DNA from: Nitrospirillum viridazoti CBAmc
GTDB lineage: Bacteria > Pseudomonadota > Alphaproteobacteria > Azospirillales > Azospirillaceae
DNA length: 64,000 nt
Direction of reading: 5' to 3'
NCBI RefSeq assembly: GCF_000730165.1
Contig: NZ_CP022110.1
Span: 1,247,501-1,311,500 of the forward strand
The notes beneath the pieces are model-generated. The model was not told the DNA's origin and did no database searches. It saw only the letters and a list, made by a program, of their open reading frames with translations. The position numbers were made by a program, and so were the translations under genes. Shown piece after piece: positions 50,612 to 57,432 of this stretch (the stretch's first letter is position 1; every line of letters starts with the position of its first letter).

Positions 50612-50710
50612 CTAGGCCGCGACCGCGGCCGCCGCAGCTTTCCGGGGAACGCAGTGGACTGGAAAGCGAGGAAGCCCAGCCGGCGGATGCCGGCACCCGG
50701 CGCCTGAGGG
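50612..50710 (+). ncRNA. candidate structured RNA / intergenic repeat, copy A
   Basis: A 99-nt element between cckA and recA with a second copy at 57332-57432. Hairpin 1: GGCCGC-GACC-GCGGCC (50615-50630). Stem 2: GCTTTCC (50637-50643) with GGAAAGC (50661-50667), enclosing a 17-nt apical segment identical in both copies. Hairpin 3: GCCGGC-GGAT-GCCGGC (50679-50694). The 3' end CCCGGCGCCTGAGGG is identical in both copies. Each stem has changed on both sides between copies while the loops have not, evidence for selected base pairing. Orientation is taken from copy B. It lies upstream of the predicted recA promoter, so it is not in the recA leader. Confidence 0.7.
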
Positions 50711-50754
50711 CATCATAACAAGAACAAAAAAGAACAAATGGCAAACTTTCGAGC

Positions 50755-50783
50755 TTGGCGAATGAGAACGTAGAGGGTACATT
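50755..50783 (+). promoter_or_regulatory. recA promoter with LexA-like box
   Basis: TTGGCG (50755-50760) and TACATT (50778-50783), 17 bp apart, are the best -35/-10 pair. GAAC-GTAGAGG-GTAC (50766-50780), one base off the alphaproteobacterial LexA box, lies across the spacer and -10. A GAAC-N6-GAAC at 50722-50735 is one base short of canonical spacing. Confidence 0.5.
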
Positions 50784-50843
50784 CCCCTTTACCGCAGCCG
50801 TTGAACGCCCGTTGGCCGTATGCGACAAGAGGGGGACAGCAAG

Positions 50844-51920
50844 ATGTCGGCACCACTTCGTCTGGTAGAAACACCCATGGATAAGCAAAAGGCCCTCGAC
50901 GCCGCTCTCGGCCAGATCGAACGCGCGTTCGGCAAGGGCTCTATCATGAAGCTCGGCGCCAAGGAGGCGTCGATGGAGGTGGATGCCATCTCCACCGGCT
51001 CCCTGGGCCTGGACATCGCGCTGGGCATCGGCGGCCTGCCGCGCGGTCGCATCATCGAGATCTACGGGCCGGAAAGCTCGGGCAAGACCACGCTGGCGCT
51101 GCACGCCATCGCCGAGGCGCAGAAGAGCGGCGGCACCTGCGCTTTCGTCGATGCCGAGCACGCGCTGGACCCGTCCTACGCCCGCAAGCTGGGTGTGAAT
51201 GTGGACGACCTGCTGGTCTCCCAGCCCGACGCCGGTGAACAGGCCCTGGAGATCACCGACACGCTGGTGCGTTCCGGCGCCATCGACGTGCTGGTGGTGG
51301 ACTCGGTGGCGGCCCTGGTGCCGCGCGCCGAACTGGAAGGCGAGATGGGCGACAGCCACGTCGGCCTGCAGGCCCGCCTGATGAGCCAGGCGCTGCGCAA
51401 GCTGACCTCGTCCATCTCCAAGTCCAACTGCCTGGTCATCTTCATCAACCAGATCCGCCTGAAGATCGGCGTGATGTTCGGCAACCCGGAGACGACGACC
51501 GGCGGTAACGCGCTGAAGTTCTACGCCTCCGTCCGCCTGGACATCCGCCGCATCGGCGCCATCAAGGACCGCGACAACGTCGTCGGCAACCAGACCCGCG
51601 TGAAGGTGGTGAAGAACAAGCTGGCCCCGCCGTTCCGCGTGGTCGAGTTCGACATCATGTACGGCGAGGGTGTGTCCAAGGTGGGCGAGCTGATCGACCT
51701 GGGCATTCAGGCCGGCGTGGTCGAGAAGTCGGGCGCCTGGTTCTCCTACGACGGTCAGCGCGTGGGCCAGGGCCGCGAGAACGCCAAGCAGTTCCTGCGC
51801 ACCAACCCGGCCATCGCCAAGGCCATCGAGGAAAAGGTCCGCGCCAACGCCGGCCTGGTGGCCGGCGCCATGATGGTGGGCTCCCCCGAGGCCGACGGCG
51901 ACGCCGACAGCCCCGAGTGA
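50844..51920 (+). CDS. recA: recombinase RecA
   Basis: A 358-residue RecA: Walker [10 protein letters not shown] (about 75-83), [20 protein letters not shown] (Walker B and L1 region), loop L2 around [20 protein letters not shown], and an acidic tail ([10 protein letters not shown]). It forms the filament for strand exchange and triggers LexA self-cleavage. The start is at ATG 50844 after GAGGGGG; ATG 50820 and 50877 are alternatives. It ends at a clear terminator. Confidence 0.97.
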
Positions 51921-51980
51921 TGCCTTCGTCGTGGCCAAAGGGCGGATGCCCTGACCGCGTCTGAGCAATGAGAATGAGCA

Positions 51981-52008
51981 AGGCGGGCCGGTGACGGTCC
52001 GCCTTTTT
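51981..52008 (+). terminator. Rho-independent terminator of recA
   Basis: AGGCGGGCCG (51981-51990) pairs with CGGTCCGCCT (51995-52004) with one G-T pair and a GTGA loop, followed by a run of T. About 60 bp after the stop. Confidence 0.85.
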
Positions 52009-54367: not shown

Positions 54368-54596
54368 CGGGGCCGTCGCGCCAATCGATCGGTCAGGATC
54401 AGTCAGTCCGCCCGTCGATCGTTCAATCGACAGGGGCGCCGGGGCTCATCTGGAATGGAAAGCGGTGAAAAGCCGCGCGCCCAGGGCATTTCATCGCCCC
54501 CATCCCATGGACAGCCCCCGCATCCGCACGCTACAAACCCTGTCCTGGTGTTTCGCGCCAGGGGATGTTCCTTCGCATGCTTAAGGCTGTTGCCCG

Positions 54597-57254
54597 ATGA
54601 AGACCGCCAACGAGATCCGCTCCGCTTTCCTGGACTACTTCGTGAAGAACGGCCACACGGAGGTGGAGTCCAGCCCGCTGGTGCCGCGCAACGACCCGAC
54701 GTTGATGTTCACCAACGCCGGCATGGTGCAGTTCAAGAACGTCTTCACCGGCAACGAGGTGCGCCCCTACACCCGCGCCACCACCTCGCAGAAGTGCGTG
54801 CGCGCTGGCGGCAAGCATAACGACCTGGAGAATGTGGGCTACACCGCCCGGCACCACACCTTCTTCGAGATGCTGGGCAACTTCTCCTTCGGCGACTATT
54901 TCAAGGCCGACGCGATCGAGCTGGCCTGGAACCTGATCACCAAGACCTTCGCCCTGCCGAAGGACAAGCTGCTGGTCACGGTCTACCACACCGATGACGA
55001 GGCGCATGGCCTGTGGAAGAAGGTGGCCGGCCTGTCGGACGACCGCATCATCCGCATCCCCACGGCCGACAATTTCTGGGCCATGGGTGACACCGGCCCT
55101 TGCGGCCCGTGCTCCGAGATTTTCTACGACCATGGCGAGGGCATCCCCGGCGGCCCCCCCGGCAGCCCGGACCAGGACGGTGATCGCTTCATCGAAATCT
55201 GGAACCTGGTGTTCATGCAGTATGAGCAGGTGACGAAGGAGGAGCGGGTGTCCTTGCCCCGGCCCTCCATCGACACCGGCATGGGGCTGGAGCGTCTGGC
55301 GGCGGTGCTGCAGGGCGTGCACGACAATTACGACACCGACCTGATGCGGGCGCTGATCGAGGCGTCGGCCGATGCCACCAACAGCGACCCGTCGGGCGCG
55401 CACGCCGTGTCGCACCGCGTGATCGCCGACCATTTGCGCGCCTCCTCCTTCCTGATCGCCGACGGCGTGCTGCCGGCGAACGAGGGGCGCGGCTATGTCC
55501 TGCGCCGCATCATGCGCCGCGCCATGCGCCACGCCCACATGATCGGCGCCCGTGACCCGGTGATGCACAAGCTGGTGCCGGCGCTGGTGCGCGAGATGGG
55601 CGGCCACTACACCGAGCTGCAGCGCGCCCAGGCCCTGATCACCGAGACCCTGCGGCTGGAGGAAACCCGGTTCAAGCAGACGCTGGACCGCGGCCTGAAG
55701 CTGCTGGACGAGGAAGAGGAAAAGCTGGGTGCCGGTCAGCCCTTGGCCGGCGAGGTGGCGTTCAAGCTGTACGACACCTACGGCTTCCCCCTGGATCTGA
55801 CGCAGGACGTGCTGCGCGGCCGCAACCGCACCGTCGAGGTCGATGGCTTCACCGCTGCCATGGAGCGCCAGCGGGCCGAGGCGCGCAAGGCCTGGGCCGG
55901 CAGCGGCGAGGCGGCGACCGAGCGCGTGTGGTTCGAGCTGAAGGATGAGCTGGGCGCCACCGAGTTCCTGGGCTACGACACCGAGAACGCCGAGGGCAAG
56001 GTCACGGCCGTGCTGGATCGCCAAGGCAACAAGCTGAGCAAGGCGACCGCCGGCCAGGATGTCATCGTGCTGGTGAACCAGACGCCGTTCTATGGCGAGT
56101 CCGGCGGCCAGGTGGGCGACAGCGGCGTGATCTTCGGCGCCGGTGGCGTCGAGGTGGCCGTCAGCGACACGCAGAAGAAGCTGGGCGCCGTCTTCGCCCA
56201 CATCGGCACCGTCACCCACGGCACGCTTTCGCCCGGACAGTTGGTGGAACTGCGCGTGAACGGCCGCCGTCGCGGCGACATCCGCGCCAACCACTCCGCC
56301 ACCCACCTGCTGCACGAGGCCCTGCGCCAGCGCCTGGGCGAGCATGTCACGCAGAAGGGCTCGCTGGTGTCGGCGGAGCGCCTGCGCTTCGACATCAGCC
56401 AGCCGACGCCGCTGTCGGATGACGACGTGCGCGTGGTTGAGGCGGCGGTGAACGCCCGCATCCTGGGCAACAGCGAGGTCGTCACCCGCCTGATGACCCC
56501 GGCCGAGGCCATCGAGCAGGGCGCCATGGCGCTGTTCGGCGAGAAGTACGGCGACGAGGTCCGCGTCGTCAGCATGGGCGGGCAGGACGAAGGCCTGAAC
56601 CGCCAGTACTCCGTTGAGCTGTGCGGCGGCACCCATGTGCGCCGTACCGGTGACATCGGCCTGTTCAAGATCGTGTCGGAGGGTGCGGTCTCCGCCGGCG
56701 TGCGCCGTATCGAGGCGCTGACCGGCCGGGGTGCGTTCGAATACCTGGAAGGGCAGGAGGGCCGCCTGCTGGCCGCCGCCGGCGCCCTGAAGGTTTCCGC
56801 GGCCGAGGTGCCGGCCCGCGTCGCCACCCTGGTGGAGGAACGCCGCCGCCTGGAAAAGGAAGTGGCTGACCTGAAGCGCCAGCTGGCCCTGGGCGGGGGC
56901 GGCGGTGCCGCCGCCACGCCGGAGAAGGTGATCAACGGCGTGAAACTGTCGGCCCGCGTGCTGGACGGCATCGATGCCAAGGACCTGAAGCCCCTGGCCG
57001 ACGAGATCAAGGGCCAGATCGGTAGCGGCATCGTCCTGCTGGTGGCCAAGGGCGAAGGTAAAGTCACCCTGGTGGCCGGCGTGACCGCCGACCTTACGGG
57101 CCGCTTCAACGCCGTGGACCTGGTGAAGGTCGCGGCAGCGGCCGTGGGCGGCAAGGGCGGCGGCGGCCGCCCCGACATGGCCCAGGCCGGCGGCAGCGAG
57201 CCCGACAAGGCCGACGCCGCCGTGGCGGCGGTCGAGGCCGCCATCGCCGGCTAG
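54597..57254 (+). CDS. alaS: alanyl-tRNA synthetase
   Basis: An 885-residue class II synthetase, full length. The aminoacylation domain reads [20 protein letters not shown] then TLMFTNAGM; the editing domain has the zinc-binding [13 protein letters not shown] and [20 protein letters not shown]; the C-terminal C-Ala domain contains [20 protein letters not shown]. It charges tRNA-Ala and hydrolyses Ser/Gly mischarges. A strong terminator follows. The leader before it contains possible hairpins. Confidence 0.97.
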
Positions 57255-57260
57255 GTTCGA

Positions 57261-57303
57261 AACAAGTCATCGGCGTGGGGGTGACCTCACGCCGATCTTG
57301 TTC
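57261..57303 (+). terminator. Rho-independent terminator of alaS
   Basis: AACAAG and ATCGGCGTGGGG (57261-57280) pair with CCTCACGCCGAT and CTTGTT (57285-57302), with one wobble pair and a small bulge, around GTGA. The stem end is T-rich. It begins 7 bp after the stop. Confidence 0.78.
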
Positions 57304-57331
57304 CTGGCTCTATCCTCTCGCGCTCTTTACC

Positions 57332-57432
57332 CTAGGACGCGACCGCGTCCGCCGGAGATTTCCGGGGAACGCAGTGGACTGGAAATCGAGGATAAGCCAA
57401 GGGCGCGGATGCGCCCGCCCGGCGCCTGAGGG
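57332..57432 (+). ncRNA. candidate structured RNA / intergenic repeat, copy B
   Basis: The second copy of the element at 50612. Hairpin 1: GGACGC-GACC-GCGTCC (57335-57350). Stem 2: GATTTCC (57357-57363) with GGAAATC (57381-57387), enclosing the same 17-nt apical segment. Hairpin 3: GGGCGC-GGAT-GCGCCC (57401-57416). The 3' end CCCGGCGCCTGAGGG is identical to copy A and here supplies the GAGGGA ribosome binding site of the MoxR-type gene, 9 nt before its ATG. CCCT at 57330 could pair with AGGG at 57429 and hide that site, which would make it a translational switch. Confidence 0.7.

What the first reader, a model, noticed from the sequence alone, without database searches (positions are those of the whole stretch)
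50612..57432. A covarying ~100-nt structured element occurs before recA and before a MoxR gene
Copies at 50612-50710 and 57332-57432 share identical loops (GACC, a 17-nt apical segment, GGAT) and an identical 15-nt 3' end. All three stems differ by compensatory changes: GGCCGC/GCGGCC against GGACGC/GCGTCC; GCTTTCC/GGAAAGC against GATTTCC/GGAAATC; GCCGGC/GCCGGC against GGGCGC/GCGCCC. Paired changes with frozen loops are the signature of a selected RNA (or palindromic DNA) structure. In copy B the 3' end forms the downstream ribosome binding site. I do not recognise it as a named riboswitch or repeat family. It could be an sRNA, a cis-regulator, or a mobile palindromic element.
Basis: partly seen in the sequence, partly recalled or inferred. 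Interest (0 to 1): 0.9.

Follow-up and report, generated by a model that had tools for sequence, protein, structure and literature searches.

The report
Class-wide hairpin-rich mobile repeat family
The two matching structured elements near recA and an AAA-ATPase gene are copies of a many-copy, transposon-like DNA repeat found in many Alphaproteobacteria, which tends to sit at gene ends and in one relative often lies exactly on stop codons.

Summary
In detail: copies at 50612-50710 and 57332-57432 differ at five base pairs, all compensated. They are not two regulators but members of a dispersed repeat. This genome (genus Nitrospirillum) gave 150 matches, all that the search scored. The third hairpin plus tail (39 nt) occurs in 36 of 385 sampled alphaproteobacterial genomes. 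Rfam has no match. In Azospirillum ramasamyi a complete unit is 156 bp and folds into five main hairpins. Its ends are imperfect inverted repeats. 14 of 14 two-ended elements found by pattern (10 units, 4 solo hairpins) have identical 3-bp flanks, TGA, TCA or TAA; 12 of 34 elements lie exactly on a predicted stop codon (expected 11%, p=1.7e-4). RefSeq gene ends agree at 9 of 15 sites that I chose. I read it as a non-autonomous, MITE-like element with a conserved three-hairpin core; the window copies are old and lack recognisable ends. G.T pairs exceed A.C mismatches 18 to 3, so one single strand seems selected. No mobilising enzyme was found; a RAYT is unlikely (absent here and in 12 of 18 other carriers). 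Host function is unproven.

The parts
50612..50710 (+). Copy A of the element (core: three hairpins plus tail), between a histidine-kinase/receiver gene (ends 50573) and recA
   Evidence: 109.4 bits; neighbours by Pfam
50615..50630 (+). Copy A hairpin P1, GGCCGC-GACC-GCGGCC
50637..50667 (+). Copy A hairpin P2 with G.U, GGA/GGA internal loop and small apical stem
50674..50701 (+). Copy A hairpin P3 (outer GCC/GGC, inner GCCGGC, loop GGAT)
50702..50710 (+). Copy A conserved tail GCCTGAGGG
57332..57432 (+).
   Evidence: 123.1 bits; neighbours by Pfam
57335..57350 (+). Copy B hairpin P1, GGACGC-GACC-GCGTCC
57357..57387 (+). Copy B hairpin P2
57396..57423 (+). Copy B hairpin P3 (outer GCC/GGC, inner GGGCGC, loop GGAT)
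57424..57432 (+). Copy B conserved tail GCCTGAGGG; its GAGGG lies where a Shine-Dalgarno sequence of the downstream gene would be

Best explanation
The two features are old copies of a dispersed, non-autonomous, transposon-like repeat (MITE-like). Shown: a complete unit, seen in Azospirillum ramasamyi, is 156 bp: a terminal hairpin beginning TACC, three core hairpins P1-P2-P3 with a conserved tail (YTGAGGG), and a second terminal hairpin whose outer arm is an imperfect inverted repeat of the first, flanked by a 3-bp duplication of TNA that is often the stop codon of a neighbouring gene. Inferred: an enzyme acting in trans cuts at the ends and joins them to a TNA target; because the duplicated triplet can be the stop codon, the hit gene keeps its stop. 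Inferred: the core hairpins are selected as a fold of one strand (RNA, or single-stranded DNA during movement). Inferred: after insertion copies decay, lose their outer hairpins, and remain as 3'-UTR or inter-gene hairpins; some tails now sit where a ribosome-binding site is expected.
For: 150 matches in the own genome, all candidates that were scored, on all four contigs at 37.3, 11.5, 7.5 and 6.1 per Mb. Near-identical copies in A. ramasamyi point to recent amplification (named). 14 of 14 two-ended elements there (10 units of 156 bp, 4 solo hairpins of 38 or 48 bp) have identical 3-bp flanks, and 12 of 34 elements lie on a predicted stop codon against 11% expected, p=1.7e-4 (an earlier run on smaller loci gave 12 of 33 against 13.4%, p=7.8e-4). 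RefSeq gene ends agree at 9 of 15 sites chosen by me, all 9 already predicted. Nitrospirillum copies with equal TNA flanks: C1:2206676 TAA and C3:924052 TGA, also C2:1547982 and C1:473796 read by eye. A complete unit sits at the fliE stop in L228, not in the window, L226, L229 or L230. One unit folds with z -8.2, 0 of 200 shuffles as good. G.T 18 cells (plus 33 at one fixed pair) against A.C 3.
Against: No mobilising gene was found: strict patterns (0 and 1 mismatch) showed no inverted pair of ends around a gene-sized stretch in the own genome or A. ramasamyi, apart from one IS5-like insertion inside a copy. In Nitrospirillum only 12 of 34 recognised left ends and 6 of 11 right ends abut TNA, 4 and 2 of these on stops, and only 2 of 6 copies with both ends recognised have equal TNA flanks. 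In A. ramasamyi the pattern itself fixed T and A; unequal flanks occur in L241 and L246 and at C7:158639/158675 and C5:267198/267302, and one G049 copy, L247, has TGA and TAA. The filled fliE site has TGA on one side and TAA on the other and its downstream DNA does not align, so it is not a clean empty-site test. The window copies have no recognised ends. 22 of 34 A. ramasamyi elements are not on a predicted stop. A covarying 39-nt motif kept across a class is more than an ordinary MITE interior needs.
Confidence: 0.8

Rival explanations
1. A host-used RNA element (3'-UTR stabiliser, Rho-site or terminator hairpin, portable ribosome-binding site) that spread and is now kept for function at gene ends. 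This does not exclude the best explanation.
For: At the recA and moxR sites orthologous copies in other Nitrospirillum genomes change mostly by compensated pairs: in 16 pairwise comparisons among 4 and 5 copies (not independent, alignment fitted to the model) 0-6 pairs changed on both sides and 0-1 broke. 121 of 150 copies follow a gene running the same way and only 3 lie between divergent genes. 61 of 85 tails facing an antisense gene lie 0-13 nt from its stop; 25 of 58 facing a co-directional gene lie 6-21 nt from its start.
Against: Sites are lost or decayed in sister genomes; no shared gene class was seen; avoidance of promoters is expected of any tolerated insertion; gene conversion between copies could also bring in matched arms; no expression data.
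Confidence: 0.3
2. REP/BIME-type palindromes mobilised by a RAYT tyrosine transposase.
For: Many copies, downstream of genes, covarying stems, G.T pairs, and a GTAG at the start of P1 in 53 of 150 own-genome copies resemble GTAG REPs as described in PMC3733652 (passages read). One of eight fetched Y1-transposase loci (L310) has a P3-like match about 1.1 kb away.
Against: PF01797 is absent from the own genome and from 12 of 18 other carriers chosen by me. The strong hits in A. ramasamyi and G049 show none of the element's ends or P3 within 1.5 kb. None of the 25 copies from other genera read starts with GTAG. A 3-bp duplication is not expected of that enzyme class (recalled).
Confidence: 0.05
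3. A trans-acting small RNA family or riboswitch present in many copies.
For: Conserved loops and tail, one-strand fold.
Against: At least 49 matches in each of 7 genomes of the genus, variable P2, positions at gene ends on either side, terminal repeats and target duplications; no Rfam hit.
Confidence: 0.05
4. Chance similarity of GC-rich hairpins.
For: Folding energies of the two window copies are near those of shuffles.
Confidence: 0.005

Closest known systems
Bacterial MITEs (review PMC10969869; MITEAba12, PMC6382973; passages read)
   Same: Short, non-coding, many-copy, terminal inverted repeats, target duplication, stable hairpins in the transcript.
   Different: Core is a covarying three-hairpin module conserved across a class; 3-bp TNA duplication often on stop codons; no parent insertion sequence found; GC-rich rather than AT-rich.
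GTAG/CGTC REP superfamilies and RAYT/TIRYT repeats (PMC3733652; passages read)
   Same: Covarying stems, G.T pairs, location downstream of genes, repeat ends that can provide stop codons, tandem and mosaic arrangements.
   Different: Three core and two terminal hairpins per unit, no tag shared by the genera seen, target duplication, no Y1 transposase in most carriers tested.
IS5-family insertion sequences of the TNA-target groups (IS1031/IS427; recalled, not checked in a database)
   Same: 3-bp TNA target duplication (recalled); an IS5-like element (by eye) sits in one A. ramasamyi copy with TTA on both sides.
   Different: That element's ends (GAGTGCG...) do not match the unit's TACC ends.
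Intergenic mosaic elements such as RIME, Bcr1, NEMIS (recalled)
   Same: Hairpin-rich mosaic repeats in gene spacers.
   Different: Not compared here.

Membership tests
MITE | Short, without a transposase gene | tested here: met
   156-bp unit, too short for one
MITE | Terminal inverted repeats | tested here: met
   A. ramasamyi ends TACCGCCGAGCGTAA / TATCATCGAGCGTAA; not recognised in the two window copies
MITE | Target-site duplication | tested here: met
   14 of 14 two-ended A. ramasamyi elements, with only the middle base free in the pattern; exceptions read; 2 of 6 in Nitrospirillum
MITE | Ends shared with an autonomous parent element | tested here: inconclusive
   None seen with strict patterns in two genomes
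MITE | Movement observed | not testable with these tools
   Only sequence comparison available
GTAG/CGTC REP | GTAG or CGTC tag next to a single 20-40 nt palindrome | tested here: not met
   GTAG in 53 of 150 own copies, in none of 25 copies from other genera; three core hairpins
GTAG/CGTC REP | RAYT gene in the genome, flanked by the repeat | tested here: not met
   one weak Y1 locus has a P3-like match about 1.1 kb away
Any Rfam 15 family | Score at or above the gathering threshold | tested here: not met
   0 matches in the window and in 8 relative loci; 6 chance-level hits at E up to 10 around copy A
Riboswitch or cis-regulator of recA/moxR | Fixed position before one gene class in relatives | tested here: not met
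Trans-acting sRNA | Discrete transcript | not testable with these tools
   No RNA-seq

The most novel reading that the evidence does not exclude
A class-wide mobile element whose hairpin core, not just its ends, is the substrate of an unrecognised transposition pathway (a folded RNA or single DNA strand that an unknown enzyme reads), and which uses a 3-bp TNA target so that it can land in stop codons and rebuild them, a way of entering gene-dense genomes without breaking genes.
Probability: 0.25. Interest if true: 0.8.

Novelty: new variant of a known kind. Interest (0 to 1): 0.55.

Why it matters
A 39-nt covarying motif found in 36 of 385 sampled Alphaproteobacteria, in 150 or more copies in this genome, is not in Rfam, and in the top listings of my ten full-text searches I saw no paper recognisable as describing it (open-licence papers only). 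If the stop-codon targeting holds, it shows how a repeat can fill coding-dense genomes safely, and the covarying core makes it testable whether folded RNA or folded DNA is what is selected. It also warns that paired changes in bacterial spacers need not mean a cis-regulator.

Tried and rejected
Tried without result: Rfam on the window and on eight relative loci; phage records with copy B; an inverted pair of unit ends around a transposase-sized gene in the own genome and in A. ramasamyi; RAYT as mobiliser. The IS5-like element in one A. ramasamyi copy was considered as the mobiliser and set aside because its ends differ. A basal stem pairing the upstream flank with the tail was considered by eye and not tested. 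Pairing of the linker after P1 with the P3 3' side was dropped because copies with GGC...GCC in P3 break it. Literature: seen as search listings only (41 listed nothing); passages read in PMC10969869, PMC6382973 and PMC3733652; a term search in PMC2267715 found none of its six terms.

Rows set aside before counts: one search kept 37 distinct copies whose BLAST match spanned at least 86 of 101 query positions; one search lists 132 of 150 copies with a TGAGG/TGAAG tail; one search leaves 4 copies overlapping predicted genes out of the distance classes. Genes were predicted by my own codon-usage script, not by a standard gene finder. The 33 A. ramasamyi loci were chosen by me; its 34 rows count one copy split by an insertion twice; its 11% background counts TNA triplets of predicted spacers in the same loci, element DNA included. 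The 15 annotated sites were chosen by me from the plasmids and include 9 already predicted to be on stops. The class search scored at most 17 candidates per genome and some of its 36 genomes have weak best hits (about 1e-4).
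Full report
What was checked. Copies A (50612-50710) and B (57332-57432) are present as described. Against each other they show five pairs changed on both sides and none broken. Their folding energies are not unusual against dinucleotide shuffles, so the signal is covariation, not stability.

Copy number. The window is G000:C1:1247501-1311500 of a 7.38-Mb, four-contig genome. BLAST with copy B gave 44 matches. 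A covariance model (R1, 37 own-genome copies, 26 pairs) gave 150 matches at E <= 0.001, which is every candidate it scored, so 150 is a lower bound. Density is 37.3 per Mb on C1 (110 copies), 11.5 on C2 (23), 7.5 on C3 (12) and 6.1 on C4 (5). Four copies stand in a direct array at C1:201031-201484, 118-119 nt apart. The genus is Nitrospirillum: a 342-residue window protein has relatives 72-89% identical in N. amazonense and N. iridis, and 81% in a record named Azospirillum sp. B4.

Structure. On the MAFFT alignment of 37 copies 97.8% of 915 cells pair and 15 of 26 pairs have two-sided changes; no shuffle of 500 reached the observed values, and slid controls fall to 29.5-47.4% paired. P1 is a 6-bp hairpin with loop GACN; P2 has nine pairs, a GGA/GGA internal loop and a small covarying apical stem; P3 has a 3-bp outer and a 6-bp inner stem with loop GGAT; the tail is YTGAGGG. 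33 of 150 copies have a shorter P2. On this strand G.T cells number 18, plus 33 at the fixed pair 33-51, against 3 A.C cells (p=0.0015 for 18 against 3). A cruciform, where both strands fold, would show no such bias, so a single strand, RNA or DNA, seems selected. The copies share ancestry, so the p-value is only indicative.

Spread. In the order, 45 of 82 genomes and 6 of 13 genera match R1. Ten genomes chosen for their hits were searched again: 7 to 149 matches each. With a model of P3 plus tail alone (R2, 20 sequences), 36 of 385 sampled genomes of the class match, in 28 of 277 genera; the rows carry 20 family codes by my count, some with weak best hits. In 19 of these loci read by eye the P3-plus-tail stays close to one sequence while P2 and the outer hairpins differ. 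Named carriers beyond Nitrospirillum are Azospirillum, Niveispirillum and Tistrella. IMG/VR gave 15 stretches, one contig with 14 matches, partly in arrays of about 108 bp period; phage records gave none for copy B.

The complete unit. The unit is 156 bp: terminal hairpin, P1, P2, P3, tail, terminal hairpin, folding in series (RNA z -8.2, DNA z -9.9 for the one unit folded). Its ends are imperfect inverted repeats beginning TACC/TATC. In 14 of 14 elements with both ends found by pattern (10 units of 156 bp, 4 solo hairpins of 38 or 48 bp) the 3 bp on the two sides are identical: TGA 7, TCA 6, TAA 1. The pattern fixed the outer T and A, so the evidence lies in the middle base. Exceptions exist: L241 and L246 by eye, and the pairs C7:158639/158675 and C5:267198/267302. 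Twelve of 34 elements lie exactly on a predicted stop codon, where 11% of spacer TNA sites are stops (p=1.7e-4). RefSeq annotation shows the same at 9 of 15 inspected sites, for example a c-type cytochrome gene ending at 49119 and an ACC deaminase gene ending at 39357, where the element begins at the next base (the others are 90, 91, 92, 97, 100, 101, 102). The remaining 6 are spacer or in-gene sites.

Nitrospirillum copies are mostly older. Left ends resembling the unit end were found for 34 of 150 copies; 12 abut TNA and 4 a stop. Of 11 right ends 6 abut TNA and 2 a stop. Of 6 copies with both ends recognised 2 have equal TNA flanks. Of 146 copies outside predicted genes, 61 lie between convergent genes, 58 between genes running the same way, 24 between genes running against the element and 3 between divergent genes. 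The tail is close to genes: 61 of 85 facing an antisense gene are 0-13 nt from its stop, 25 of 58 facing a co-directional gene are 6-21 nt from its start. I infer insertion at stops followed by loss of the outer hairpins, and use of the GAGGG tail as a ribosome-binding site in some cases; neither step is shown.

Orthologous sites. At the moxR site the element is present in four relatives and in L226 only its two ends remain; at the recA site it is present in L226 (twice), L228 and L230, internally deleted in L227 and decayed in L229. Between orthologous copies 0-6 pairs changed on both sides and 0-1 broke in each of 16 comparisons, which are not independent and use an alignment fitted to the model. 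That fits continued selection on the fold, or gene conversion between copies; I cannot separate the two. At the fliE stop L228 carries a complete unit and the window, L226, L229 and L230 do not, but its flanks (TGA, TAA) differ and the DNA beyond does not align.

What moves it. PF01797 is missing from this genome and from 12 of 18 other carriers. The two strong hits show no element ends or P3 within 1.5 kb; one weaker hit (L310) has a P3-like match about 1.1 kb away. No inverted ends around a gene were found with strict patterns. The mobiliser is unknown.

Verdict. A real, class-wide, covarying repeat that behaves like a MITE with an unusual structured core and a leaning to stop codons; the two window copies are relics. 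Whether the core serves the host, the element's movement, or both is open.

Noticed in passing
window 50711-50738 and the same place in L226-L230: Directly after copy A all five relatives keep a block CATC..AAC.AGAACAAA.AAGAACAAA before recA, possibly a LexA operator (recalled), even where the element has decayed.
   Followed up: no
G000:C1:200903-201484: Four copies in a direct array 118-119 nt apart, with a fifth, inverted short-P2 copy at C1:200903.
   Followed up: partly
G000:C1:274885 and C1:304039: Two copies lose P3 at the same point and run into the same sequence, perhaps an insertion-sequence end.
   Followed up: no
L251:520-1382: An IS5-like element (by eye) sits inside the left terminal hairpin of one A. 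ramasamyi copy, with TTA on both sides.
   Followed up: partly
L330-L333: Solo 38-bp and 48-bp palindromes in A. ramasamyi with the unit's ends and 3-bp duplications.
   Followed up: partly
L300, L301, L291 (IMGVR_UViG_2708742415_000004): 14 distinct pattern matches in one 47.9-kb contig, partly in arrays of about 108 bp period.
   Followed up: partly
Own-genome copies, 5' side: Three kinds of left border: a hairpin (often ending GTAG), GGAGCGNAGCGA, and a mixed rest that includes a T-rich stretch ending CC.
   Followed up: partly
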